From NCBI RefSeq assembly GCF_023701485.1, contig NZ_JAMQBK010000021.1, forward strand, positions 1 through 64,000: 64,000 bases of DNA, read 5' to 3'. Below are positions 2,092 through 19,582 of the stretch, one piece after another. The stretch comes from Aporhodopirellula aestuarii. GTDB taxonomy: Bacteria; Planctomycetota; Planctomycetia; Pirellulales; Pirellulaceae. Position 1 is the first letter of the stretch, and each line of letters begins with the position of its first letter. The notes under the pieces are model-generated. The model worked only from the letters and a program-made list of their open reading frames with translations, was not told the DNA's origin and ran no database searches. Position numbers and translations under genes: made by a program.

Positions 2092-2244
2092 TGTGGTGGA
2101 TCGCGGGGGACATTGATTGTTTCCGTGCTCATCTTAGCGGAACGGCGCAAGCCGCCCGGTCCCGTGTTACCGGACGGCTTGCGCCGTTCCGCTACTTTTA
2201 GAATCCCGCAGTCATTAAATCGACGCTCCCAGCGATCCCCCACA
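2092..2244. repeat. Palindromic element PE, copy 1
   Basis: An almost complete inverted repeat of about 153 bp. The core is AGCGGAACGGCGCAAGCC and its reverse complement GGCTTGCGCCGTTCCGCT around a short centre (2137-2193). Outside the core, the left arm (GGGACATTGATT, from 2107) pairs with the right arm (AATCGACGCTCCC, to 2230), and pairing continues into TGTGGTGGATCGC / GCGATCCCCCACA at the outer ends. The same core and arms recur at 4072, 7393 and 19435. Small frames inside it on both strands are by-products of the palindrome. Confidence 0.85.
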
Positions 2245-3993: not shown

Positions 3994-4179
3994 ATGCAGA
4001 TCAAGGTTCAAGTCGACGATGTACCAGAAGTGGCCGCTGATGTGTTGATCAACGCTACATGTCACGTATTTGGAACATTGAAAGTTTTAGTGCACTTGTT
4101 AGCGGAACGGCGCAAGCCGTCCGGTAACGCGGGACCGGACATCTTGCGCCGTTCCGCTATATTTGAAATCCCGCAGTAA
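3994..4179 (+). pseudogene. Macro-domain gene start cut off by palindromic element copy 2
   Basis: Starting 20 bases after the macro-domain gene, the frame reads MQIKVQVDDVPEVAADVLINA. This resembles the first strand and the 'VDAIVNA' motif of a macro domain. After about 26 codons (near 4072) the frame enters palindromic element copy 2 and then stops at 4179 in element sequence. No continuation of a macro domain is seen downstream of 4194. The likeliest reading is a tandem second macro gene truncated by the element. The short match makes the family call tentative. Confidence 0.5.
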
Positions 4180-4332: not shown

Positions 4333-4441
4333 GGATTGAAAATTGAGAATTGACAATTCGGAAATGCAAATTGCAATTCGGTTCACACGCTCTCAATTTT
4401 CAATTTTCATTTGTCATTTGTCAATTTAACTTTTTCAAGTC
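4333..4441. repeat. AT-rich inverted repeat (S23-type arm pair), empty copy A
   Basis: Left arm at about 4333-4380 (GATTGAAAATTGAGAATTGA then CAATTCGGAAATGCAAATTG). Right arm at about 4391-4441 (CTCAATTTTCAATTTTCATT then TGTCATTTGTCAATTTAACT). The right arm's reverse complement contains GAAAAAGTTAAATTGACAA, the same sequence that flanks the four-helix gene at 12094-12462. Nothing is carried between the arms. It lies 20 bp past the stop of the sulfatase gene and could also end its transcript. Between 4195 and 4332 the minus strand keeps a short tail-like frame that may be a gene remnant. Confidence 0.65.
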
Positions 4442-4460
4442 TCCTGACTTCAATAGCCTG

Positions 4461-7247
4461 CTATCTTCTCCGTCCCGGCCGGTTCAGCGTTTCGAGCTGT
4501 CCCCAGTATCCTCCGATGATGTGCGGATACTCGCCCGGCGTGACGTGATAGTGCGGTCCACGATCGGCGTCTTCGTGAAGATTGAAGTCGTTGAGTGGAT
4601 TCTTGGTGTCGTCCTTGGCAAGCAGTCCCTTTGACTCGTAAGGCCCGTAGACAGGAAAGCCATCGAAGGCGAATCCGATGACGCTGGAATGTGCTTGGCC
4701 CTCGTCGCTCCACGGTGTTTTGACGCACACGGGGTACTTGTGATAGTGATATTGCTGTTGCGGACTTGGGTGTCCGCAACACCGATCTAATCGCCACACG
4801 GCATCAGTTTCAAAGATGTGGTCGAACGGGTTGAAGAAGATCACACCGTTGGTCGCCACCCCAATCGCGCCCATCGGCAGGGCTTGGTTGGAATTCTTTT
4901 CGTCCATCGCGATTGCGCCGGGATCACGTTTGGGCTCTAGCGGGATATACCACGTATTCGCCTGTTCCTTGATGTACGACGGATTGCTGTCGAGCATCCG
5001 CCAGCGATCGGGGAAGGTTGCGGTCGGGTGATTGGGTAAATTGCGACTCCGCATCACGAGATGTTTGTCGGTGAACGTGATGACGACGGCGTAGGGTTTG
5101 TACTGGTCTTTTTCGACGGAATTGCCATCGAAGTCCAGATAGCCAGCACGCAGCCATGAACTCATGTTGCCGGCAAACGGTGCTTCAAACCGATCCGTCT
5201 TGTAAAGCAATTGATCGGAGTTCGTATAGTCGAACTGTTTTGGAAGCGTTCGCAGGCCATCTTTCGGGTTGAAGTACCAGCGTCCACCGAGAGTAATCAG
5301 CTTCGATTCATCTGGTTGTGGGAAGTGTTGGATGGACGGTTTGGCTGGTTGGAAGTTAGCGGGTGCGTCGATGGGTTTGATGTCCATCGAATTGACCCAA
5401 AACTCCGATTTCGCTCCTTGGGCTTTCCCGTTGGCAAAACCGACACTCAGCTTCACGGTATCGACTTCCGCGAATGGCGTGCGAAAATCCATCGCGTAGG
5501 TTCGCCAAGTCGCGTGGCCGAGGCTCTCGTTGGTGTCTTGATCAAAGAAGTCTTTTCGCTCCTGAAGGACCTGTGAGTAAATTCGTTCTTTGATGAGGTC
5601 GAGTGAATCCGTGCCGCCCCTTTGAAAGAACTCAACTTTCAAATACAGATCGTCTTGATCGACGGCGAAGTTGTCTTGTGCGAGGCCGGAGATGTAGAAC
5701 CGATACCATCGCTGTTGAGGGGAGACTGCGGTGCTAATGAGCGAAGCTTCGCCGGCGAACGTACCGTTGCTGTCGGCGTCTTCACCCGAAAGCAATCGCA
5801 CACCGCGTCCGTTGGATTCAGTTCGCGGATCGCCGAGCACACCGTATTTCGCATCACCTCTGAGCGTGGCCATCGCAAGCGACTCACCCTCTTGCAAGTC
5901 AGCTTCCACGCTTTGGCGAGCGTAGCTACCGTCGCCAGACGGTGGGACGGGGCCATCGGTTTGGACGACGACTTGGTACTGCGCCAGTTTGGACCGCAAC
6001 TGCGAGACGACATTGGCCTTCGAATCTGCCAGGTTTTTTTCCTCAGCGACATCCGACTGAAGGTTGTAGAGTTCCGTTTTTCCGTCGGCGAATTGGATCA
6101 ATTTCCAATCGTCGCGAACGATGGCATGATCGTTCTCGGCAATCACGATGGTTCGCGGGGTTTCCTTGCCAGCTACCAACTGTGACCAGAGGCTCACTCC
6201 GTCGAGTGGCTTGGCCGATGAGATCGAAACTCCGGTGGCCTCCGCGAGCGTGGGGAACAGATCATGAATCGCACTGAGTTGTTGATTTTCGGTTCCGGCT
6301 TTTATCAAGCCAGGAGCGCGGATGACGCAGGGGACGTGAATGCCGCCCTCGTAGACCTCCCGCTTCTGCCCACGAAACGGTTCGTTGGTTCCGGTTCGCA
6401 CTGCACCGTTATCTGAAGTAAACACAACGATGGTATCGTTTTGTAGTTTTTGTTGATCGATCTCGGTCAGAATGCGACCGATTCCTTGGTCCATCGAGTC
6501 GATCATCGCGGCATAAGTCGCTGCACGCTCATTCAATCGACCGCGGTATTTGGCGATCAGTGTCTCGGGTGCCTGGAACGGTGAGTGCGGCGCATTGAAC
6601 GAAACGACCATGCAGAACGGTTTGCGTTTGTCGCGAGCATGGATCTGTCGTACGGCTTCGTTGGCTAACAAGTCCGTCGAATACCCATCTTCGTTGAGTG
6701 TTCGACCGTTGCGCTGCCAATCGACCTGGCCGCGTAGTCCGGTATGCTTGAAATAGTCCACCGAAGCATCCATGAACCCATAAAACTGATCGAAGCCGCG
6801 GCGGGTCGGGTGGGCTTCGGCATTGGTAATTTGTCCGAGATGCCATTTGCCAATCAGGCTGGTTTGATAGCCAGCCATTTGAAACGCTTCCGGAAGCAAC
6901 TGTTCGCTGGTCGGCAAGCCTTCGTCGCGGGGGCGAACGGGACCAGCAATGCCGTAGCGCTGAGGAAAGCGACCGGTCAGCATGGCGGCACGCGCTGGAC
7001 TGCAGGCGGGGTAGGCGTAGAAGCGATTCAGCCGGACGCCGTCGGCTGCCAGGCGGTCGATGTTTGGCGTTTGAGCACTTCCGCCGTGAAAGCCGATGTC
7101 GCCCCATCCAAGATCATCAGCAAGCAAGATGACAATGTTCTTGTGAGCATGAGCGTGTGCGATTGAGGGCACTATCAAAACGGTAGCAGCCAGCAGCACG
7201 AGCGAATAACAGACGAGTCGGCTAGGTCGATAGTTCGGTAGCGGCAT
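4461..7247 (-). CDS. Secreted sulfatase with C-terminal YHYH domain
   Basis: A 928-residue protein counted from the start at 7247, chosen because a signal peptide (about 1-35, ending SIAHAHA) then follows directly; the frame is open to 7310. The type I sulfatase domain spans about 36-450: DDLGWGD metal ligands, YPACSPARAAMLTGR with the formylglycine cysteine near residue 82, GKWHLG, and TSDNGA. A middle beta-rich region follows (about 460-660). The last 270 residues are a YHYH domain, with QQQYHYHKYP and FDGFPVYGPYE. It should cleave sulfate esters from polysaccharide outside the cytoplasm; the YHYH domain's role is unknown. The fusion of the two is unusual. Confidence 0.88.
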   Translation of the reverse strand: MPLPNYRPSRLVCYSLVLLAATVLIVPSIAHAHAHKNIVILLADDLGWGDIGFHGGSAQTPNIDRLAADGVRLNRFYAYPACSPARAAMLTGRFPQRYGIAGPVRPRDEGLPTSEQLLPEAFQMAGYQTSLIGKWHLGQITNAEAHPTRRGFDQFYGFMDASVDYFKHTGLRGQVDWQRNGRTLNEDGYSTDLLANEAVRQIHARDKRKPFCMVVSFNAPHSPFQAPETLIAKYRGRLNERAATYAAMIDSMDQGIGRILTEIDQQKLQNDTIVVFTSDNGAVRTGTNEPFRGQKREVYEGGIHVPCVIRAPGLIKAGTENQQLSAIHDLFPTLAEATGVSISSAKPLDGVSLWSQLVAGKETPRTIVIAENDHAIVRDDWKLIQFADGKTELYNLQSDVAEEKNLADSKANVVSQLRSKLAQYQVVVQTDGPVPPSGDGSYARQSVEADLQEGESLAMATLRGDAKYGVLGDPRTESNGRGVRLLSGEDADSNGTFAGEASLISTAVSPQQRWYRFYISGLAQDNFAVDQDDLYLKVEFFQRGGTDSLDLIKERIYSQVLQERKDFFDQDTNESLGHATWRTYAMDFRTPFAEVDTVKLSVGFANGKAQGAKSEFWVNSMDIKPIDAPANFQPAKPSIQHFPQPDESKLITLGGRWYFNPKDGLRTLPKQFDYTNSDQLLYKTDRFEAPFAGNMSSWLRAGYLDFDGNSVEKDQYKPYAVVITFTDKHLVMRSRNLPNHPTATFPDRWRMLDSNPSYIKEQANTWYIPLEPKRDPGAIAMDEKNSNQALPMGAIGVATNGVIFFNPFDHIFETDAVWRLDRCCGHPSPQQQYHYHKYPVCVKTPWSDEGQAHSSVIGFAFDGFPVYGPYESKGLLAKDDTKNPLNDFNLHEDADRGPHYHVTPGEYPHIIGGYWGQLETLNRPGRRR

Positions 7248-7564
7248 GACGGGATTTCCGATGCGGGTGTGTGAGACAAAGCGGAGCGTGGTTTTGGAAA
7301 CCCGGCGCACTTAAATGATCTACAGGGCGTTTCTCTAAAGCATCGATGTTTTTGCTGTGGCCAACGTCGTCAGGCGGTGGACCACGTTCTGGGGGACGTT
7401 GATTGTTTTAGTGCCTTCTTTAGCGGAACGGCGCAAGCCGTCCGGTTCCGAGTCACCGGACGGCTCGCGCCGTTCCGCTACTATTGAAATCCTTCAGTAA
7501 TACAATCGACGTCGCGGCGAACGTAGATACCTTTCAAAACGATTTCGAAGCGAGACGTAGGCCG
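7248..7564. other. Intergenic gap carrying element PE copy 3
   Basis: This is the gap between two minus-strand genes, the DUF1566 gene upstream and the sulfatase downstream. Nearly half of it is palindromic element copy 3. No gene or clear promoter was recognised; the palindrome probably insulates the two genes, which argues against a shared transcript. Confidence 0.4.
7393..7514. repeat. Palindromic element PE, copy 3
   Basis: About 122 bp. Left end GGGACGTTGATTGTTTTAGT, core TAGCGGAACGGCGCAAGCCG then CGGCTCGCGCCGTTCCGCTA, right end AATCCTTCAGTAATACAATC then GACGTCGC. The inverted pairing extends outward into ACGTTCTGG / GCCGCGAACGT-like flanks, to about 7377-7534. Same family as the copies at 2092, 4072 and 19410. 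Confidence 0.85.
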
Positions 7565-8920
7565 TTACTGAAAACGACGTGGACGGCCGCTCGCGGGGAG
7601 GGTGTGTTGCTCGATCGGTGGTCCGTTCTCGCGCACGGTCACTTCGCCTCCTCGTACCGGGCGGACCAGGTTGTAGATCCCGATCACATCGCCTTGCGGG
7701 CCACGACCATGCGGGAAGCGAGACGGATCGCCGGCCTTCAGATCGCTACGTTGTGCACCGGCACCGTGAACGTCCAACAGGCTCATTCCGCCACGTGGGT
7801 CCCGCATCCATCCTTGAGACCGGCCAAACGAAAGGTAAACCGCAGAATCGCCACGTCCCAATCGCTTGTGTGTCGTTCCGGTCCAGTATGAACCGAAGTC
7901 CGGATTCCCGGCAGGGTTTGCCTGAGGTGTGCAGATGAAGAGCTCCGCGATTGCGGCCGACTGAGTCGTGTCTGGCGAACGGGTGTAGTCGACGATGCTC
8001 TGCAACTCCTTGGCGTTGGGCAAACGCCAGTCGCTATGACCGGCGAATTCGAGGCTCTCAGCCCAAGCAAGAGCCTGCTGCCAATTCAGTTTTCCGTCAT
8101 GATGATCGCCTGCCTTGAGCGTTCCGCTGTCGCCCTGTAGCCAAGTCAGCCCTGTCGCCTGATCGGTTACCGTGCCGTCGCCATTATCATGAAAGTCGTT
8201 GGTCCCGTAGTCCGGATTTCCGCGAACATAGAACACGACATAAGTCTTTTCACCGCGTCGTGGATTGGAGCCGATCGGATAGCCTTTGATGCGTCCATCG
8301 GCGAAGTTCACGCCGAACATGGTCGGGCTTCCATGCATTGTCGTGCTCACGTACTTGGTTGACGTCGCACACTGGCAATCAATGATTCGCTCACCTGTGG
8401 ATGGATCGCCATAAGCAAAGTCGAAATAGTTGGTGTCGATGAACGGATGAAGGCCTGCGGCGGATCGGGCTTGCGGGTCGATATCTTCGCCGCTGAAGTC
8501 AATCAGCGAGTACAGTTCCTTGATGCTCGGCAAACGCCAATCATCGAAGCCGCCGACACGGCAAGCTGCGGCACCTGCGACCGCTTGGTTGAAAGTGACT
8601 TTCTTCCCGGGGGTCTTCTGCCACATCAGACCCGAGACGAGGTCAGAAATGGTGCCATCGCCGTTGTCTCGGTATGTCGGCTGATTGCCTTCGTAGTGTG
8701 CGTCTTGCCCAAACAGCGGTTGGCCTGTCTTGGGGAATATGATTTCGCGAGAGTTGCCGTAACATCGTCGCTGAGCGGTGTCCACGATCGAGTAAGTAGC
8801 GGAGGGGAAGGCTGCTTGGCCCTTGCGACTTGGCAAATCTTCCGCCACCACACCAGCTTTCAGTGTGAGGAAGACTGCGCAAAACATGGATGCGGAACAG
8901 AACGTAAGACTCGGTTTCAT
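7565..8920 (-). CDS. Exported protein with two DUF1566 (Lcl C-terminal-like) repeats
   Basis: About 451 residues from the start at 8920, where a signal peptide begins (MKPSLTFCSASMFCAVFLTL). Two copies of the DUF1566 pattern are visible. The first has DNGDGTISDLVSGLMWQ and WRLPSIKELYSLID. The second has DNGDGTVTDQATGLTWLQ and WRLPNAKELQSIVD. The DxNxDGT loops suggest calcium binding. The family is found in secreted or surface proteins of many bacteria and its function is not known. The frame is open to 8953, but the first 11 residues are unlikely in a signal peptide. It is transcribed divergently from the sigma factor gene. Confidence 0.82.
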   Translation of the reverse strand: MKPSLTFCSASMFCAVFLTLKAGVVAEDLPSRKGQAAFPSATYSIVDTAQRRCYGNSREIIFPKTGQPLFGQDAHYEGNQPTYRDNGDGTISDLVSGLMWQKTPGKKVTFNQAVAGAAACRVGGFDDWRLPSIKELYSLIDFSGEDIDPQARSAAGLHPFIDTNYFDFAYGDPSTGERIIDCQCATSTKYVSTTMHGSPTMFGVNFADGRIKGYPIGSNPRRGEKTYVVFYVRGNPDYGTNDFHDNGDGTVTDQATGLTWLQGDSGTLKAGDHHDGKLNWQQALAWAESLEFAGHSDWRLPNAKELQSIVDYTRSPDTTQSAAIAELFICTPQANPAGNPDFGSYWTGTTHKRLGRGDSAVYLSFGRSQGWMRDPRGGMSLLDVHGAGAQRSDLKAGDPSRFPHGRGPQGDVIGIYNLVRPVRGGEVTVRENGPPIEQHTLPASGRPRRFQ

Positions 8921-9014
8921 CGAGATCAGCCTTGGATACAATGGAGTTCGCAATCACCTCACGATTAGAAACCCCAGCGATTGCAGTCATCTACAAGCAC
9001 AGCCAAACTTTTTT

Positions 9015-9623
9015 GTGAATACCGACATCGGAGAGATCGAGCGGCAGCTTAAACAGGGTGATTTATCGCTGTTTGCCCAGGCGTTTTCTCGCCATCTCCC
9101 CCGATTGTGGCAGATCGTCCATTTCCGGCTGAGTGATCAAATTCGAGCACGTGTTGATGCTGATGATGTATTGCAGGAAGTCTACTTGGATGCGGAAAAA
9201 CGCCTGAGCCACTACGTCGAGGGGAATTTTCCGTCGCTGTTTCTCTGGCTAAGGCTGGTTACCGGGCAAACGCTTAGCCGGGTTCATCGGCGGCATCTGA
9301 CCACTGAATCTCGTTCGACGTTGCGTGAATCTAGCCCGAATGGCGAAAATCCGTGGGGCAACACGTCGCTGTGTCTTTCGCAGCGTTTCATTGCTCATCT
9401 GACTTCGCCCAGCCAAGCAGCGGTAAAGACTGAGTTGATTGCGGAGGTGCGATCGGCACTGAGTGAGATGAGTGACATGGACCGCGAAGTGGTCGCGCTG
9501 CGTCACTTTGAAGAACTGACCAACCAGGAAGTCGCCATGGAACTTGGCATCACGCCAAAAGCCGCCAGCATTCGGTATGTGAGAGCGTTGGAGCGGTTGC
9601 GGTCGGTGCTGGAGAAACTGTGA
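9015..9623 (+). CDS. ECF-type RNA polymerase sigma factor
   Basis: About 202 residues from a GTG start at 9015; the frame is open to 8823 but would overlap the divergent DUF1566 start. Region 2 is visible as DADDVLQEVYLDAEKRL (core binding and -10 recognition). Region 4 is MSDMDREVVALRHFEELTNQ followed by a helix-turn-helix (EVAMELGITPKAASIRYVRA). The linker between them is long. This fits the planctomycete ECF class that often sits beside Ser/Thr kinases, and a kinase gene lies 3 kb downstream. No anti-sigma gene is adjacent. Its regulon is unknown. Confidence 0.88.
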   Translation: MNTDIGEIERQLKQGDLSLFAQAFSRHLPRLWQIVHFRLSDQIRARVDADDVLQEVYLDAEKRLSHYVEGNFPSLFLWLRLVTGQTLSRVHRRHLTTESRSTLRESSPNGENPWGNTSLCLSQRFIAHLTSPSQAAVKTELIAEVRSALSEMSDMDREVVALRHFEELTNQEVAMELGITPKAASIRYVRALERLRSVLEKL

Positions 9624-9654
9624 GTGTTGGTTCCGCGGACGAAGGATGAGGCGG

Positions 9655-9760
9655 AAGATTGAGAAGGTTAAATTGACAATTGAAAAATGCAAATTGATCA
9701 GTGGCAAGATCGTTCGCAATCATTTTTCACTGTCCAGTTGTCAATTTACAAGTTTTAATC
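9655..9760. repeat. AT-rich inverted repeat (S23-type arm pair), empty copy B
   Basis: Left arm at 9655-9700 contains AAGGTTAAATTGACAATTGA and AAAATGCAAATTGATC. Right arm at about 9715-9760 contains CAATCATTTTTCACTGTCCA and GTTGTCAATTTACAAGTTTT. The two arms are reverse complements over about 40 bases with mismatches. This is the same arm sequence that flanks the four-helix gene at 12094, but here the interior is only about 15 bases. It lies just after the sigma factor stop codon and may double as its terminator. Confidence 0.7.
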
Positions 9761-9866
9761 TGTGTCCATGTTTTTCATGAATCTTGCTGAGTTTCCGGTA
9801 GATGTTCCCTCACGGTGGGGTTTTAGGCAGTGAACCTTCCTCACTGAAACTTCCACGGGACTCATC

Positions 9867-10601
9867 ATGAAGCGTCTGTCGTTGCTCACTGTATTTTGTG
9901 CGTTGGCTCTGTTACTAAGCGAATCAATTGTCAATGCGCAACCTCCGGGCGGTCGCCCCGGCCAAGGAGGCGGACGGCAAGGAGGCGGATCTGGCGGTGA
10001 ACGAGGTCCTGGCGGTAGACAAGGGATGGGGGGCGCTGGCGTTCAACAAACACCCCCGCTGCTTCGCATCTTTGATGCAAACGGTGATGGGGAACTTTCG
10101 TCGAATGAAATCGACACTGCGGCAGTTGCATTGCGAAAGCTCGATCAAAACCGCGATGGAAAACTAACAGCCGAAGAATTGCGCCCCGCTGGTCCCGGGG
10201 GACAGCAGGGCCGGCAAGGTGGGGCCGGAATGCAAGGAGGCCCAGGTCAGCGTGGCGGGCGTCAAGGAACGGGCGGTCGACCTTCTGGTGGTGGAACCCA
10301 GGAAGGAGGACGCCCCGGTGGTGGTGGCGGTGGAGGGGGTGATCGAGGCGGCGATCCTGCCCAGGCCGATGCCGCCTTTGCGAAAGACATGATGTCGTTT
10401 GACGAAAACAGGGACGGGGCACTTGGTGAAGCCGAATTGCCCGAACACATGCACAAAGCATTTGCAATCGCCGACGCCAACAAAGACGGCTTGTTGGACG
10501 AAGAAGAGCGACTTGTGTTGGCGTCGCAGTTTCGGCGTAACAAATTGAATCCGACTGGCGACGCTCCCGTGAACACGCCAACTCAAGGCCGACGCCCGTG
10601 A
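9867..10601 (+). CDS. Exported Gly-rich EF-hand protein
   Basis: 244 residues with a clear signal peptide (MKRLSLLTVFCALALLLSES, cleaved near 24). Four EF-hand calcium loops are visible: DANGDGELSSNE and DQNRDGKLTAEE in the first half, DENRDGALGEAE and DANKDGLLDEEE in the second. Between and before the pairs are long Gly/Gln/Arg-rich low-complexity linkers. Planctomycetes have many such secreted EF-hand proteins, probably calcium-dependent structural or binding proteins at the cell surface. The next gene also begins with a signal peptide and a Gly/Gln/Arg-rich linker, 68 bases away, so the two are probably co-transcribed. Confidence 0.85.
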   Translation: MKRLSLLTVFCALALLLSESIVNAQPPGGRPGQGGGRQGGGSGGERGPGGRQGMGGAGVQQTPPLLRIFDANGDGELSSNEIDTAAVALRKLDQNRDGKLTAEELRPAGPGGQQGRQGGAGMQGGPGQRGGRQGTGGRPSGGGTQEGGRPGGGGGGGGDRGGDPAQADAAFAKDMMSFDENRDGALGEAELPEHMHKAFAIADANKDGLLDEEERLVLASQFRRNKLNPTGDAPVNTPTQGRRP

Positions 10602-10669
10602 TCGAGAAGCTCGACTCCGCATTCGCAGACACGCAAAGACTCAACCTCACACAAACTACGAGATTATCG

Positions 10670-12031
10670 ATGAAACTTTCCAACCTTCCAATCCTGTACC
10701 GCTTCGCGGCCTTGATAGTCATGGTGCTGATGAGCGGCACGTTGCAGGCACAATCTCCACGGGGCCAACGGCAAGACGGCCAAGGGTTCGGGCAAGGCCC
10801 ACGCAGCGGTGGTCAGCGTGGTGCTGGGCAAGGTCGTCCGGGTCAGGGCCGTGCGGGGCAGGGGCGTGGACAAGGCGGGGGCCAGCGTGGTGGTCAAGCG
10901 TCACAGGGCGGCCGGCCTCGCGATCGCGTTCGTCCGCGTGACACTCAATTCAACGAGAGGTTTCCTCTCGGTGCCGAACTGCCTGAGGATCTTCAAGTCT
11001 ACGATGTCGATCGGGAATTGGTGCCCGTGAACAGCATCTTCCAGTCGAAGTACACGGTCATCGTCGGTGGCTGTTTGACATGTCCCGAATTCCGAAATTC
11101 GTACCCTGAGATCGAGGCGGTTGCTCGCGACTTCAAGGATCGAGACGTTGACTTCTACTTCCTGTACCAATCGTTGACGCATCCTGAGAATTGGGGATTC
11201 GTGCAGCCGTCTTCGATCGAGGATCGATTTGCTCAGGTCGACCATGCGAAGGAGCTCTTGCAAACCCAAATTCCGTGGTTGACGGATCCGATTGACAACC
11301 AGTTAAAGACCTATTTCCTCCTGACTCCGAATTCTCAGTTCGTGTTTGATCAAGCGGGCAAAGTGGTTCATCGTAATTCATGGGGACACGGCGCAAACCT
11401 TCGCGAGTCGCTGGAGACTTTGGTCGGCAAGCCGGAAACACTGACCACGGTCGAAGACTTGAACCTTCCTCGTTTCGAACGTCACCTCACGCCCAAGAGT
11501 GAAATGCTCGTGGAACGAGTCAGCGTGGAAGGGAAAGCTGTCCCGTTGCGGGTCGAGTCAGGTGGAGAAAGCAATCCTGTGTCTGCCTTGCTGTCAAGCG
11601 ATTTCAATCAGTCCAACCGTTATGTCAAGCTTCGGCCCGAGGCAGACCAACAATTGATCGAAACCGGAACGGGGACGCTGTACCTTGGCTTTCGCCAAGA
11701 CCCGGTGTTGGGAGCCAGTTGGAATAACCTCGCCAGTCCACCGGAGTACAAGATCGTTGCCGAAGGTGCAACGGTCTCACCCGCAATGGGGCAATCAACG
11801 CGTTTGGAAGTCGAATCCGACAATGAGCCACGCGAGTTCTTAATCGAAGTGAAGAACTGGGACGCCGATAAACCGATTGCGGTAAAAATTCAGTACTTTG
11901 CGTGCAACAAGGAAAAGGGTTGGTGCAAGTCGGTACAACAGGAATTCACGGTCTGGTTAGACGAAGATAAATCGGCGGGGATGGTGAATGGACGCAGTCA
12001 CTTTCCGGGTGGTGGGAGGAGGCGGAATTGA
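10670..12031 (+). CDS. Exported thioredoxin-fold protein, iodothyronine-deiodinase-like
   Basis: 453 residues from the start at 10670, where a signal peptide begins (MKLSNLPILYRFAALIVMVL); the frame is open to 10598. A Gly/Gln/Arg-rich linker covers about 30-90. Residues about 125-260 look like the deiodinase branch of the thioredoxin fold: VGGCLTCPEF (Cys135, Cys138), then DVDFYFLYQSLTHPENWGF, which resembles the deiodinase 'YxxEAHPxDGW' segment. Cys138 takes the place of the deiodinase selenocysteine. The remaining 190 residues resemble a beta-rich C-terminal domain. A redox role in the periplasm is likely; substrate is unknown. It probably shares a transcript with the EF-hand gene. Confidence 0.7.
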   Translation: MKLSNLPILYRFAALIVMVLMSGTLQAQSPRGQRQDGQGFGQGPRSGGQRGAGQGRPGQGRAGQGRGQGGGQRGGQASQGGRPRDRVRPRDTQFNERFPLGAELPEDLQVYDVDRELVPVNSIFQSKYTVIVGGCLTCPEFRNSYPEIEAVARDFKDRDVDFYFLYQSLTHPENWGFVQPSSIEDRFAQVDHAKELLQTQIPWLTDPIDNQLKTYFLLTPNSQFVFDQAGKVVHRNSWGHGANLRESLETLVGKPETLTTVEDLNLPRFERHLTPKSEMLVERVSVEGKAVPLRVESGGESNPVSALLSSDFNQSNRYVKLRPEADQQLIETGTGTLYLGFRQDPVLGASWNNLASPPEYKIVAEGATVSPAMGQSTRLEVESDNEPREFLIEVKNWDADKPIAVKIQYFACNKEKGWCKSVQQEFTVWLDEDKSAGMVNGRSHFPGGGRRRN

Positions 12032-12039
12032 AGGGAAGG

Positions 12040-12085
12040 TATTGAAAAAGTTAAATTGACAACTGAAAAAGGTCAATTTGAACAA
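12040..12085. repeat. Left inverted-repeat arm flanking the four-helix gene
   Basis: Reads TATTGAAAAAGTTAAATTGA then CAACTGAAAAAGGTCAATTTGAA. Its reverse complement matches the right arm at about 12477-12520 on the other side of the four-helix gene. The same arm is found in the empty copies at 4333-4441 and 9655-9760. It begins right after the stop codon of the deiodinase-like gene and overlaps nothing coding. Confidence 0.7.
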
Positions 12086-12093
12086 GTTCGTCT

Positions 12094-12462
12094 TCAACCC
12101 TTCCGTAGATTCGATTTCGCTGTGAGCACTGATTTGCCAATGATGTTGCATAGTTGATTCGCTTCGTCGAGCAGATCAGACATTCGTTTGTTTGGTAGCA
12201 ATTCAGATTTAAGTATCATTTTGATCCATGTGCGGGACTCGCGAAGTTCTTTCAACGCAATTCCCAGTTTATGAATGAAATCCTTTTTGCTTTCAGCGGC
12301 ACATGCCTCGGCGTAATTGGGAGCGGGCGATGTTCCGCTGCGCACAAGCTGACCAGCAATGTGTCTTCCGAGCCTAGAGTCAGGCAATGCGTCTACCACC
12401 TTTCCGACACGGCACGCAAAATCCAGCAGACGATCTTCCAATTCATCTCCACGTTTATCCAC
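12094..12462 (-). CDS. Four-helix bundle protein, S23 / 23S rRNA intervening-sequence family
   Basis: 122 residues from a GTG start at 12462, with the family pattern clear. An N-terminal helix (LEDRLLDFACRVGKVVDALP) is followed by the signature HIAGQLVRSGTSPAPNYAEA, then ESKKDFIHKLGIALKELRES and a last helix. Relatives are encoded in 23S rRNA intervening sequences and free-standing in many genomes; the related Avd protein serves diversity-generating retroelements. Here no rRNA or reverse transcriptase is near. The gene is bounded by inverted AT-rich arms (12040-12085 and 12477-12520), so it looks like cargo of a small mobile or REP-like unit. The molecular role is unknown. Confidence 0.85.
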   Translation of the reverse strand: MDKRGDELEDRLLDFACRVGKVVDALPDSRLGRHIAGQLVRSGTSPAPNYAEACAAESKKDFIHKLGIALKELRESRTWIKMILKSELLPNKRMSDLLDEANQLCNIIGKSVLTAKSNLRKG

Positions 12463-12476
12463 AGAATCACCTTTCC

Positions 12477-12520
12477 CTCAATTTCAAAGTGTCAATCGTC
12501 AATCTAACCTTTTCAATTGC
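12477..12520. repeat. Right inverted-repeat arm flanking the four-helix gene
   Basis: Reads CTCAATTTCAAAGTGTCAAT then CGTCAATCTAACCTTTTCAATT. It is the reverse complement, with mismatches, of the arm at 12040-12085. Further single arms of this type (CAATTTCAAATTTCCAATTG, TCAATTTAACTTT) recur at about 12597-12636 and 12716-12755 as part of the 119-bp tandem repeat. The four-helix gene's promoter must lie in or beside this arm. Confidence 0.7.
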
Positions 12521-12527
12521 CAGCGAC

Positions 12528-12765
12528 ATTAACTCCCTCGATCTGGACGACACGTCAAGCTCATCTCCACGCTTATCCACGACATTGCCTTTTCCCCAAT
12601 TTCAAATTTCCAATTGTCAATTTAACTTTCTCAATCTCTATCCCGTATGAACTCTCTCGACATGGACGACATGTCAAGTTCATCTCCACGCTTATCCAAG
12701 ACATTGCCTTTCACTCAATTTCAAATTTCCAATTGTCAATTTAGCTTTTTCAATTTTTGTCGCGT
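12528..12765. repeat. Two extra tandem copies of a 119-bp divergent start region
   Basis: Each 119-bp unit (12528-12646 and 12647-12765) contains, in order: a copy of the kinase's first codons (ATG or ATT, AACTCcCTCGAyvTGGACGA); eight junction bases; a reversed copy of the four-helix gene's start (TCATCTCCACGCTTATCCAC, which on the minus strand still reads GTG-D-K-R-G-D-E); and the AT-rich arm. The genuine four-helix start (12442-12462) and kinase start (12766) lie at the two ends. Spacing from AAC at 12531 to 12650 to 12769 is exactly 119 each time. The array therefore multiplies the divergent promoter and both start codons. Confidence 0.85.
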
Positions 12766-15288
12766 ATGAACTCTCTCGACCTCGACGACACCTATTCAAC
12801 GGTCGATATCCTCGCTAGCGATTTCGTGGCACGCTATCGCAATGGCGATCGACCAACGGTAGAGGAATACGCGAATCGCCATCCCGAATTGAGCGAGCCG
12901 ATCCGTCGCGTCTTTCCGTTGGTACTTTCGGTGGAAAAGGTCAAGATCGACCAGCAATCCGAAAGCGATGGAAGTGCAACGCTTGCGGGGCGAGTATTGG
13001 AACGACTCGGTGATTTTCGACTCGTGCGAGAAATCGGGCGAGGTGGAATGGGAATCGTGTACGAAGCCGAACAGGAGTCGCTTGGACGACGTGTCGCGAT
13101 CAAGGTTCTGCCAAAACAATCTTTGCTGAACGACGATGCGTTACAAAGTTTCAGACGCGAAGCCAGCACGGCGGCGGCGATGCATCATTCCAATATCGTG
13201 CCAATCTTCGGGACAGGCCAGTGCGAGGGAACGCATTTTCTGGTGATGCAACTCATTCGAGGCGAGTCGCTGGATAAACGCGTCACCACAGAGCAACCGT
13301 CGTTCGATTGTCGCACGGCAGCTGAAATCGCCGCCCAGATTTCAGACGGACTTGCTTATGCTCATGGTAACGGCGTACTTCATCGCGACGTGAAACCGGC
13401 CAATATCCTTATTGATGAAGATGGCGTCGCGCAACTAACCGACTTCGGACTTGCGCGGAACACGCGAGATGATCCGACCATGACGCAAGCTCTCAGCGGA
13501 AGTCCTCGCTATATGGCGCCGGAGCGTTTTCAAGGACAATCGGATGAGCGGTCAGACGTTTACGGGGTTGGTTTGACACTCTATGAAATGCTGGCAGGCA
13601 CTCCTGCTTTTAAAGGCCTGACGCCGCATCAATTGCCGGAGGCCGTGAAGCTTCATCTCATCAAGCCACTGACCGAGTTTCGCAGCGACATTCCCACCGA
13701 CTTGCAAACGATTGTTGCCAAAGCGATCAATCCTGAGCCGGCACATCGGTATCAATCCGCGACCGATCTGCGAGATGATCTGAATCGTTTCTTAAAAGAC
13801 GAGCCGATCCTCGCTCGACGCACAACGACATTGCAGAGACTTGTTCGCTGGTGTCGTCGCAACCCGAAACTCGCTACCGTCACCGGCATTGCAATCGTGT
13901 CGATGCTGGCCGCGACCGTCGCGTCGTCGGTCGGGTTTGCGATGACATCGGCTGCCAACAAGCGGTCCAGTGAGGCACTCGCGCAATCCGAACAAACCGT
14001 CGATCTCGCACTTCATTCGCTCGATGGTGTCGTGGACGTCATTTCTATCCCCGCATCGGCGATGGGGGACATGGATATGGGAGAAATGGATTCGGGACAA
14101 TTTCTGCTAAACCCATCCCCCCACGCGGCAAAGGTTCTTGAGAATATCCAACCACTGTACGAACGGCTTGCTAACCAGTCTCCCACTCGGCCTGACATTC
14201 TTCGGCAAATGATCGAAGCGAGCCTTCGGCTTTCCCTGATTCAACAACAACTCGGACAGATCGACGCTGCGATCGGCACGCTCAACCAAAGCGTTGAACT
14301 CTTGGAGACACGCGGTAACCTAGCCGGTTTGCCAATTAATGAGAAACGAATTCTCGATGCGCGTTTGCATAACGAGCTCGGAAAAGTTTACGCACTGAAC
14401 TTGGACTATGCGAAATCGGATGAAGCTTTCGAAATGGCTATCCAGTCCGGTGAAGCTGTCACCGATCCCGACGATCGGCTGAAACTGCAGTTAGCGTATG
14501 CTTTGGTTGCACTCGGTGATCCGCCCGCCCAGCGGCGCAGGGACCAAGCCGAAATGCCGGGTGAATCCCGAACCGCTCGTGAGCGTCTATCGGCAGCCCG
14601 GGCGATTCTAAGCGAATTGAATCCCGCAGCGCATGATGCAAGTGAGGTGTCCGTGCTGCGAGCGCGGATTCATCTTGCCGATTCACGTCGAGCAAAGCGG
14701 CCAGCGGTTCGACAGTCTGAGTTTTTGTCAGCCATCGAAATCCTGCGTGAACGATTGACTCAAACACCGGACGATTCCCGTGTTCGATTTGCCTTGGTCG
14801 AAGTACTCGCCAGCGTGAATCTGCGAAGACAATTCGGGTCGGAACGATTGACCGACGAAGCGGAAAAACGCCTTCACGAAGCGCTCGCCGAATTGCAACC
14901 GCTCCGGTCGATCAATCCCAAGACACAACTGTTCGCAGTCTCCGAAGTTCATATCCTGCACAAACTATCGAACCTCGCTCGTTCGAACGGAGACTTCGCC
15001 CTGGCACTAGATCGCCTCGAAAAGGCAATTGCCATCCAGTCGTCTTTGGTCGATGCATCGCCCGACAGCATGCCCCACCGATGCTGGCGAGCGTTGCTAT
15101 ACCGAAGTCTCGCCGAAGTTCACCGACGCCAAGGCGACGACGACGCCGAGCGGGAAGCAATCACGGCTGCTGTTGCCGACTTAGACGCGATCTCCCCCGA
15201 GTCACGGGAACATCCGTTTGCAGTTCAGACTCAACAGATCATCCAAAAACTCGCCGCTGACGCAGCCTCTGAACCTGACGCTTTGTAG
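12766..15288 (+). CDS. Membrane-anchored Ser/Thr protein kinase with TPR-like C-terminal half
   Basis: 840 residues from ATG at 12766; a TTG three codons upstream is in frame but less likely. The kinase domain spans about 84-345: GRGGMGIVYEA glycine loop (91-101), AIK with Lys113, HRDVKPAN with Asp208, DFG at 226-228, and SPRYMAPE activation segment end. One transmembrane helix follows (about 366-390). The remaining 450 residues are helical, TPR-like repeats, predicted on the far side of the membrane. This is the standard planctomycete kinase architecture, often linked to ECF sigma factors; one lies 3 kb upstream. Its start codon region is the source of the 119-bp tandem array. Confidence 0.9.
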   Translation: MNSLDLDDTYSTVDILASDFVARYRNGDRPTVEEYANRHPELSEPIRRVFPLVLSVEKVKIDQQSESDGSATLAGRVLERLGDFRLVREIGRGGMGIVYEAEQESLGRRVAIKVLPKQSLLNDDALQSFRREASTAAAMHHSNIVPIFGTGQCEGTHFLVMQLIRGESLDKRVTTEQPSFDCRTAAEIAAQISDGLAYAHGNGVLHRDVKPANILIDEDGVAQLTDFGLARNTRDDPTMTQALSGSPRYMAPERFQGQSDERSDVYGVGLTLYEMLAGTPAFKGLTPHQLPEAVKLHLIKPLTEFRSDIPTDLQTIVAKAINPEPAHRYQSATDLRDDLNRFLKDEPILARRTTTLQRLVRWCRRNPKLATVTGIAIVSMLAATVASSVGFAMTSAANKRSSEALAQSEQTVDLALHSLDGVVDVISIPASAMGDMDMGEMDSGQFLLNPSPHAAKVLENIQPLYERLANQSPTRPDILRQMIEASLRLSLIQQQLGQIDAAIGTLNQSVELLETRGNLAGLPINEKRILDARLHNELGKVYALNLDYAKSDEAFEMAIQSGEAVTDPDDRLKLQLAYALVALGDPPAQRRRDQAEMPGESRTARERLSAARAILSELNPAAHDASEVSVLRARIHLADSRRAKRPAVRQSEFLSAIEILRERLTQTPDDSRVRFALVEVLASVNLRRQFGSERLTDEAEKRLHEALAELQPLRSINPKTQLFAVSEVHILHKLSNLARSNGDFALALDRLEKAIAIQSSLVDASPDSMPHRCWRALLYRSLAEVHRRQGDDDAEREAITAAVADLDAISPESREHPFAVQTQQIIQKLAADAASEPDAL

Positions 15289-19409: not shown

Positions 19410-19582
19410 CACTTTTTACGTAGCTGAGGCTCTCGGGATGTCGATTGAATTGCCGCGGGATTTTTAATTTAGCGGAACGGCGCGAACTGTCCGGTAACCT
19501 GGGACCCGACGACTTGCGCAGTTCCGCTAGAAAGTGCACTAAAACTTTCGACGTCCCGAGCGGCCGGGCTACGTGAAATGTG
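19410..19582. repeat. Palindromic element PE, copy 4 (inverted, longest)
   Basis: The best-preserved copy and in the opposite orientation to copies 1-3. The core is at about 19471-19529 (AGCGGAACGGCGCGAACTGT and GACTTGCGCAGTTCCGCT). The arms TCTCGGGATGTCGATT (left) and CGACGTCCCGAG (right) pair. Pairing continues outward through TACGTAGCTGAGGC / GGCCGGGCTACGT to CACTTTTT / AAATGTG, so almost 173 bp form one imperfect palindrome. The remainder of the gap up to 19813 has no recognisable gene. Confidence 0.85.

What the first reader, a model, noticed from the sequence alone, without database searches (positions are those of the whole stretch)
12040..12520. Four-helix (S23) gene flanked by inverted repeats that also occur as empty hairpins
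Seen in sequence: the four-helix gene 12094-12462 lies between arms at 12040-12085 and 12477-12520 that are reverse complements of each other. The same arm (…AAAAGTTAAATTGACAA…) makes empty hairpins at 4333-4441 and 9655-9760. Established: this protein family (S23, also called 23S rRNA IVP; Avd is a relative) occurs in rRNA intervening sequences bounded by inverted repeats. Inference: here the protein and its repeats may form a free, REP- or MITE-like unit in which the protein serves the hairpin, in the way RAYT serves REPs. No rRNA or reverse transcriptase is near.
Basis: partly seen in the sequence, partly recalled or inferred. Interest (0 to 1): 0.72.

Follow-up and report, generated by a model that had tools for sequence, protein, structure and literature searches.

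The report
Tiny mobile gene in repeat hairpins
A small protein gene of unknown function sits between mirror-image runs of a seven-letter DNA repeat; the same kind of packaging surrounds most of its relatives examined here, and the packages, with or without the gene, turn up at different places in related bacterial genomes.

Summary
The window gene is an S23/PF05635 four-helix protein between inverted arms, with two gene-free hairpins of the same arm nearby. In its 9.07 Mb genome this arm occurs only in this 8.4-kb stretch, but six sister genomes have 4-30 arm hits each (112 hits in 13 genomes; reversed control 1). Arms frame intact, decayed, internally deleted or no S23 gene at different sites. 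The three window sites lack arms in the five relatives with matching genes. A sister species has nine 97-100% identical copies of another S23 element.

The arms are degenerate arrays of 7-nt units, and that generalises. Of 73 testable S23 loci from over a dozen phylum-level groups, 57 have flanking arms that pair with each other (control placements 4 of 263). Period 7 dominates; the unit differs between loci and tends to be shared by related S23 proteins. Viral contigs (25 of 28) and the window's family (24 of 27) agree.

I read it as a tiny two-part mobile unit: S23 protein plus cognate array hairpin, gene-free copies being derivatives. The mover is not shown; S23 resembles Avd, the reverse-transcriptase partner of DGRs, so a borrowed RT is my leading guess.

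The parts
12094..12462 (-). S23 / 23S_rRNA_IVP four-helix-bundle gene, 122 aa, intact
   Evidence: PF05635 61.8 bits; TIGR02436 89.1 bits; AlphaFold2 model pLDDT 96.4, best PDB matches S23 structures 2rld and 2gsc
12041..12082 (+). left arm of the S23 element (degenerate 7-nt units TTGAAAA/AGTTAAA/TTGACAA...)
   Evidence: reverse complement of the right arm
12478..12517 (+). right arm of the S23 element; element ends ATTG...CAAT, 477 bp in all (12041-12517)
12437..12765 (+). tandem repeat of period 118/119: S23 5' end + right arm, and by eye a piece like the kinase-gene 5' end; extra right arms at 12596-12634 and 12715-12753
   Evidence: the repeat finder D1, D2, D3; sequence
9656..9761 (+). 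gene-free hairpin of the same arm (arms 9656-9698 / 9719-9761) between a sigma-70-like gene and an EF-hand gene
   Evidence: I6; neighbours by Pfam; no arm between the matching genes in 5 of 5 relatives
4334..4438 (+). gene-free hairpin of the same arm (arms 4336-4376 / 4398-4438) beside the sulfatase gene end
   Evidence: I7; no arm beyond the sulfatase end in 5 of 5 relatives; the far side of this site was not checked for gene order
10598..12031 (+). host gene on the left of the insertion (no Pfam match)
   Evidence: orthologues in 6 sister genomes; in 5 of them followed by the kinase gene
12757..15288 (+). host gene on the right of the insertion, protein kinase with TPRs (PF00069)
   Evidence: orthologues follow in 5 sister genomes with no S23 gene or arm between

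Best explanation
The feature is one copy of a very small two-part mobile element: a single S23 four-helix-bundle gene between inverted arrays of a short (mostly 7-nt) repeat, the arrays being the mobile ends. Shown: arms of one locus match each other, the array sequence is locus-specific and shared by close S23 relatives, elements sit at sites that are empty in relatives, and gene-free and internally deleted copies with the same ends exist. Inferred: the S23 oligomer binds its own array, folded as a hairpin in RNA or single-stranded DNA, and hands it to an enzyme supplied in trans. My best guess is a host or mobile-element reverse transcriptase, as its structural relative Avd works with the DGR reverse transcriptase; gene-free hairpins then ride on the protein from intact copies. 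Confidence by step: mobile S23+array unit about 0.8; S23 specifically recognises its array about 0.6; reverse transcriptase as mover about 0.3. The number below is for the statement without the choice of enzyme.
For: Arms pair within a locus: 57 of 73 S23 loci above the 95th percentile of mismatched pairs, mean score 19.6 vs 8.4, 0 of 10,000 permutations, inverted better than direct 61 to 11; control placements 4 of 263. Repeats of the test: window's family 24 of 27, viral contigs 25 of 28 distinct, cut-off carried over, cyanobacterial plasmid loci by eye 7 of 9 clear, 1 weak, 1 without. Period 7: lag-7 self-match 0.394 beside the gene vs 0.265 far away, lag 14 0.358 vs 0.256. Array similarity follows protein similarity: r = 0.50, 0 of 5,000 permutations, 55 loci. 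Arm hits per genome: G002 30, G009 28, G007 19, G005 17, G004 8, G000 5, G001 4, G008 1, five others 0; reversed control 1 in all. The S23 protein at 80-81% identity is in G002, G005, G007, G009 and decayed in G001. Insertion: no arm at sites A, B, C in 5 of 5 relatives, nor anywhere in the six fetched stretches at up to 2 mismatches. Same arms frame the gene at another site in G002, G005, G007, G009. Deletion derivative L259 keeps positions 1-110 and 458-493 of a 493-bp element. Nine full copies 97-100% identical in G006, 8 different right flanks. Protein maintained: dN 0-0.004, dS 0.06-0.18 among four sisters. Fold like Avd 4dwl and Avd chains of DGR RT complexes.
Against: No enzyme in the element, and no binding or movement measured. 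No target-site duplication in 27 end pairs. The mismatch test for RNA-level pairing was negative: G.U 59, A.C 75. Between phyla the array-protein correlation is weak (r = 0.175; 0.129 without one cluster). A second array family (TTAGCNN) is in 13 of 13 genomes and does not follow its S23 subfamily cleanly. G004 has 8 arm hits but no S23 of this subfamily. Several arm-rich genomes are close relatives, so the count correlation is not independent. [quoted passage not shown] RT (12 of 13 genomes) and Y1 transposase (13 of 13) are too common to discriminate.
Confidence: 0.6

Rival explanations
1. Repeat first: heptamer hairpins are independent repeats spread by some other enzyme, and S23 genes are cargo that keeps landing between the arms of hairpins.
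For: In G002 only 2 of 30 arm hits flank the intact gene; G004 has arms without this S23; TTAGCNN arrays are common in genomes without the matching S23, e.g. G001 and G003; Y1 transposases are in 13 of 13 genomes.
Against: Array sequence follows S23 protein similarity; element length constant at 493 bp in four species, though these share one site; L259 is a deletion of the gene-bearing form, not an empty precursor; the gene is under purifying selection.
Confidence: 0.15
2. Regulatory reading: S23 is an RNA-binding regulator; the arrays are binding sites in its own mRNA (autoregulation) and in other transcripts, and mobility is a side issue. MacGregor 2015 proposed translational control for TAACTGA heptamers.
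For: Arms close a long stem around the ORF: RNA fold -144 kcal/mol, z -2.3; strong conservation of the protein; MacGregor's abstract places most TAACTGA repeats of one genome just upstream of start codons; Xanthomonas heptamer sites are conserved between two species.
Against: No excess of G.U over A.C mismatches in the arms; the window's sites are not shared by relatives; many gene-free copies are full inverted pairs rather than single operators.
Confidence: 0.15
3. Plain rRNA-IVS remnant: an S23 intervening sequence that escaped an rRNA gene once; arrays and hairpins are unrelated slippage products.
For: Same protein family and same plan (ORF in the loop of a terminal stem) as the Coxiella IVS (Warrier 2016, passages).
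Against: No rRNA match in the window or around 80 S23 loci (rRNA could be masked there); arrays pair with each other locus by locus across phyla.
Confidence: 0.07
4. A conserved host gene with local low-complexity flanks; apparent movement comes from rearrangement and tandem duplication.
For: Tandem duplications of arm-bearing segments occur in the window and in G002; some G006 copies share flanks, so segmental duplication contributes.
Against: Arm-free orthologous sites with kept gene order; near-identical copies with 8 different right flanks; paired arms in most loci tested.
Confidence: 0.03

Closest known systems
23S rRNA intervening sequences (IVS) with an S23 ORF, e.g. Coxiella burnetii
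   Same: Same protein family; single ORF in the loop of a stem of terminal inverted repeats; thought selfish or formerly mobile
   Different: Not in an rRNA gene; ends are mostly 7-nt arrays; many gene-free copies; sites differ between species
REP sequences with RAYT (TnpA-REP) proteins (features recalled)
   Same: A dedicated protein family paired with dispersed palindromes, copy number roughly following presence of the protein (in this arm family); no target duplication seen
   Different: S23 is not a Y1/HUH transposase; arms are short tandem arrays; the gene lies between the arms
MITEs (features recalled)
   Same: Gene-free and internally deleted derivatives sharing terminal inverted repeats with a gene-bearing element
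   Different: No target-site duplication seen; parent encodes no known transposase
Heptanucleotide repeats in bacteria: cyanobacterial STRRs (recalled), TAACTGA in Beggiatoaceae (MacGregor 2015), GGGAATC in Xanthomonas and GGGGA(C/T)T in Nostoc (Rehm 2015)
   Same: 7-nt tandem arrays, mostly intergenic; inverted pairs common in Xanthomonas; spread over distant phyla
   Different: The terms S23 and helix bundle do not occur in the held main text of those two papers; here the arrays are tied to S23 genes. Whether those very repeats flank S23 genes was not tested
Avd of diversity-generating retroelements
   Same: Same fold; Avd chains in DGR reverse-transcriptase complexes match the window model
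   Different: No RT hit on this contig; window protein does not hit the Avd equivalog model

Membership tests
S23 / 23S_rRNA_IVP protein family (PF05635, TIGR02436) | Profile match above the curated cut-off; four-helix bundle | tested here: met
   61.8 vs 33.8 bits; 89.1 vs 24 bits; model matches 2rld and 2gsc
23S rRNA intervening sequence | Lies inside an rRNA gene | tested here: not met
   No Rfam match in the window
23S rRNA intervening sequence | Terminal inverted repeats closing a stem around the ORF | tested here: met
REP/RAYT | Cognate protein is a Y1/HUH transposase (PF01797) | tested here: not met
   Only PF05635 hit at E <= 0.001
REP/RAYT | Dispersed palindromes whose number follows presence of the cognate gene | tested here: inconclusive
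   Roughly met for the TTGACAA arm with G004 as exception; not clean for TTAGCNN
MITE | Terminal inverted repeats and internal-deletion derivatives | tested here: met
   L259, L263 and others
MITE | Target-site duplication | tested here: not met
   0 of 27 end pairs, rows partly redundant; GTT stands at both ends of 9 of 9 G006 copies, TSD or part of the element not resolved
Diversity-generating retroelement | Reverse transcriptase gene nearby | tested here: not met
   RT hits of G000 are on other contigs
Diversity-generating retroelement | Template and variable repeats (TR/VR) | not tested
   -
Diversity-generating retroelement | Avd equivalog (NF033474) | tested here: not met
   no hit for the window protein; 21.7 bits vs cut-off 80 for a typical S23
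Heptanucleotide tandem repeats (STRR-like) | Head-to-tail 7-nt units | tested here: met
   As a class; in the window arm itself the units are degenerate

The most novel reading that the evidence does not exclude
S23 proteins are the dedicated partner proteins of a large, unrecognised class of transposase-less mobile elements, present in many bacterial phyla and perhaps archaea, whose mobile ends are inverted short arrays (mostly 7 nt, also 6, 8 and 9). Each S23 lineage reads its own repeat. Many puzzling heptamer repeats of bacteria (cyanobacterial STRRs, TAACTGA, GGGAATC) would be the gene-free form, rRNA IVSs one site-specific offshoot, and Avd a relative of these proteins recruited by an RT.
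Probability: 0.4. Interest if true: 0.92.

Novelty: new variant of a known kind. Interest (0 to 1): 0.8.

Why it matters
S23/'four helix bundle' genes are common (75 of 100 genomes of the window's family) and have no established function outside rRNA, and 7-nt repeats of bacteria have lacked an origin. A tight link between the two gives each a testable explanation: a protein whose nucleic-acid partner can be read from its own flanks, and a repeat with a predicted binding protein. It offers many natural protein/repeat pairs for binding tests, a possible origin for rRNA intervening sequences and Avd, and a caution that PF05635 alone is a poor marker of DGRs.

Tried and rejected
RNA-level pairing test (G.U against A.C mismatches in arms): no signal. 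Strand polarity of arms: 5' arms G>C in 52, C>G in 2, tied in 4, but an inverted pair has the same polarity on both strands, so this says nothing about gene strand. Period 8/9 arrays forming protein clades: 6 of 17 nearest neighbours agree, 540 of 10,000 permutations reach it, not significant. Second array family TTAGCNN as a replicate of the copy-number coupling: not clean; overlapping hits within one array are counted several times there. RT and Y1 transposase presence as a discriminator: present almost everywhere. RT beside S23 fragments on G006 contig 50: an RT reading frame is there, taken as chance. RT-like motif near viral-contig S23 loci: none by a simple motif scan. S23 in phage records: no match with one query. 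Exact insertion point in the window: relatives too diverged in the intergenic region. dS between the window copy and its relatives: no finite value. Site of the bare palindrome L263: no arm in the 250 bases shown in G007, G009, G011 and G001, a half arm in G004, another arm pair nearby in G005.

Rows dropped: 80 loci to 73 (short flank or N); (near contig ends), L002 not entered because it overlaps L001; (6 with identical S23 DNA, 1 short flank), 55 of 80 loci with a clear 7-nt array. One search is by eye on 9 of 10 fetched loci out of 39 plasmid records, two of the nine being near-identical relatives. The 80 loci are the best matches to one query alignment, not a random sample. Of the 21 far-control arrays, 18 also have period 7 or 14, so such arrays are common in these genomes.

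Full report
OBSERVATION. The gene at 12094-12462 (-) is a bona fide S23/23S_rRNA_IVP protein. It lies between arms 12041-12082 and about 12478-12517 that are reverse complements. Gene-free hairpins of the same arm sit at 4334-4438 and 9656-9761. Nothing in the 9.07 Mb genome outside window positions 4418-12748 carries this arm: five hits at up to one mismatch, reversed control zero. The right arm is present twice more at 12596-12634 and 12715-12753, inside a 118/119-bp tandem repeat that carries the start of the S23 gene and the arm and, by eye, a piece like the start of the neighbouring kinase gene.

ANATOMY. The arm is a degenerate array of 7-nt units (TTGAAAA AGTTAAA TTGACAA ...). The other five S23 genes of this genome sit beside arrays of different units: TTAGCNN for the pair inside a tRNA cluster, GGGAGCT/ACTCCCA, GAGAAGC (weak; its arms do not pass the pairing test), TTAGCTG with GATTAAG.

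GENERALITY. One scan of GTDB genome contigs with an alignment of ten S23 proteins gave the best 80 of at least 583 loci. Going by record titles they come from Verrucomicrobia, Planctomycetes, Bacteroidota, Proteobacteria, Clostridia, Omnitrophota, Nitrospirales, Acidobacteria, Gemmatimonadota, Chloroflexi, Cyanobacteria, Patescibacteria, Caldiserica, KSB1 and one archaeal bin; the archaeal and cyanobacterial loci had too short a flank for the pairing test. Of 157 flanks of up to 320 bases, 76 hold a tandem array at a fixed threshold, 58 of them with period 7 or 14, 8 with 8 and 7 with 9; one of the 76 is a run of N in L156. Far stretches of the same loci: 21 of 320; shuffles: 2 of 157. In 73 loci with enough flank, upstream and downstream arms pair with each other far better than with arms of other loci (mean 19.6 vs 8.4; 57 of 73 above the 95th percentile of mismatched pairs; 0 of 10,000 permutations), and inverted rather than direct (61 to 11). 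Gene-sized control placements in the same loci pass in 4 of 263. Of nine cyanobacterial plasmid loci read by eye, seven are clear, L307 is weak and L305 has none; units are such as GGGTGTA, GGGAACA and AGGGAAG.

PROTEIN AND ARRAY. Array similarity rises with protein similarity (Mantel r = 0.50, 0 of 5,000; 55 loci). Much of this is within clades: between phyla r is 0.175 (2 of 5,000), and 0.129 without the Planctomycete-Verrucomicrobia AGTTGAG pairs. Near the window gene, S23 relatives at 80-81% identity share the TTGACAA arm, while relatives at 63-76% have, by eye, ATTGCAA or AATGGGT-like arrays.

MOBILITY. (a) Upstream gene and kinase gene are neighbours in five relatives with no S23 gene between them, and the sequence beside the two hairpin sites also lacks the arm. 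A script finds no arm, at up to two mismatches, anywhere in the six fetched stretches of 10.9-19.9 kb. The sixth relative, G008, keeps the upstream gene but not the kinase beside it. At site C only the sulfatase side was compared. At one of these places G001, and at another G010, holds a different hairpin family. (b) The same arms frame the S23 gene at another site, with flanks alike among the four, in G002, G005, G007 and G009. (c) Arm hits per genome: 30, 28, 19, 17, 8, 5, 4, 1 and five zeros; reversed control 1 in total. The four genomes with the most hits have the intact gene, G001 a decayed one, G004 none. (d) Twelve gene-free copies share with the 493-bp gene-bearing element only terminal stretches of 29-55 bp at E <= 0.01; L259 is an internal deletion of it (75% identity over the first 110 bases, 94% over the last 36); L263 is a bare 44-bp palindrome. 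(e) G006 holds nine full copies at 97-100% identity of a different S23 element, 612 bp with the adjoining hairpin, terminal repeats GTTCTGGC/GCCAGAAC, array period 6; by eye eight right flanks and about five left-flank types, so some copies arose by segmental duplication or beside related repeats. (f) No target-site duplication in 27 end pairs, partly redundant.

SELECTION. Among four sister species the S23 gene has dN 0-0.004 against dS 0.06-0.18, so the protein is kept. The four share one site, so this is vertical maintenance after insertion.

FOLD. AlphaFold2 gives a confident four-helix bundle (pLDDT 96.4). Best PDB matches are S23 proteins 2rld and 2gsc; then, with E-values above 0.01 but TM about 0.7, Avd of the Bordetella phage DGR (4dwl) and chains of DGR reverse-transcriptase complexes (8ub7, 8ube, 8ub8), with unrelated four-helix proteins among and above them. 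As RNA the window element closes a long stem around the ORF (z -2.3).

MECHANISM. Shown: a unit with specific ends, at sites that vary, with gene-bearing, decayed, deleted and gene-free forms. Inferred: S23 binds its own array as a hairpin and brings a borrowed enzyme. The Avd likeness favours a reverse transcriptase. RT genes are in 12 of 13 genomes of the genus and Y1 transposases in 13 of 13, so presence alone does not decide. The RNA-specific mismatch test was negative.

LITERATURE. MacGregor 2015 (PMC4679880: abstract and term passages) describes TAACTGA heptamers in Beggiatoaceae, Cyanobacteria and Bacteroidetes, notes that no transfer mechanism is evident and suggests translational control; the terms S23 and helix bundle are absent. 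Rehm 2015 (PMC4692102: passages; one section) reports 186 GGGAATC arrays in X. [quoted passage not shown] Warrier 2016 (PMC4990558: passages) describes the Coxiella IVS, older ideas of mobility and the pentameric S23 structure. A 2023 DGR paper (PMC10053308: passages) treats PF05635 as Avd-like. A 2023 CRISPR survey (PMC10910872: one figure legend) lists IVP among its domains; in Anabaena sp. 90 an S23 gene lies between cas6 and cas4, with arrays. I found no paper joining S23 to heptamer arrays in the open library (listings); subscription papers and preprints are not in it.

VERDICT. The finding is real, the REP/MITE-like reading is largely right for the unit, and the general rule (S23 gene plus own short-repeat arrays) is the larger result. 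The mover is unknown.

Noticed in passing
window 2137-2192, 4100-4159, 7421-7480, about 19472-19527: A different REP-like hairpin (TAGCGGAACGGCGCAAGCCGTCCGGT...) in four places; the copies at 4100 and 7421 have arms 92% and 96% complementary.
   Followed up: no
window 12437-12765: Tandem repeat around the right arm that carries the start of the S23 gene and, by eye, of the kinase gene; similar arm-bearing tandem repeats (186, 268, 324 bp) occur in G002.
   Followed up: partly
L001/L002 (G000 contig 83, 41497-45319): Two adjacent S23 genes among tRNA-like sequences with TTAGCNN repeats between them (tRNAs judged by eye).
   Followed up: no
L302 (Anabaena sp. 90 plasmid pANA02): S23 gene with arrays between cas6 and cas4 of a type I-D CRISPR locus; may explain why this family shows up in a CRISPR survey.
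   Followed up: no
L222 12660-12960 and L225 8420-8690: Another hairpin family (CACGAAT units) occupies the orthologous places of the window hairpins in G001 (site B) and G010 (site C).
   Followed up: no
G002 contig 1 and G009, query part 319-433 of L263:500-1750: A 115-bp repeat with about 30 copies in each of G002 and G009, beside the bare palindrome.
   Followed up: no
L183 3486-3531 and 4059-4104: Two Acido-Lenti-1 RNA matches within 1.3 kb of an S23 gene in a KSB1 genome.
   Followed up: no
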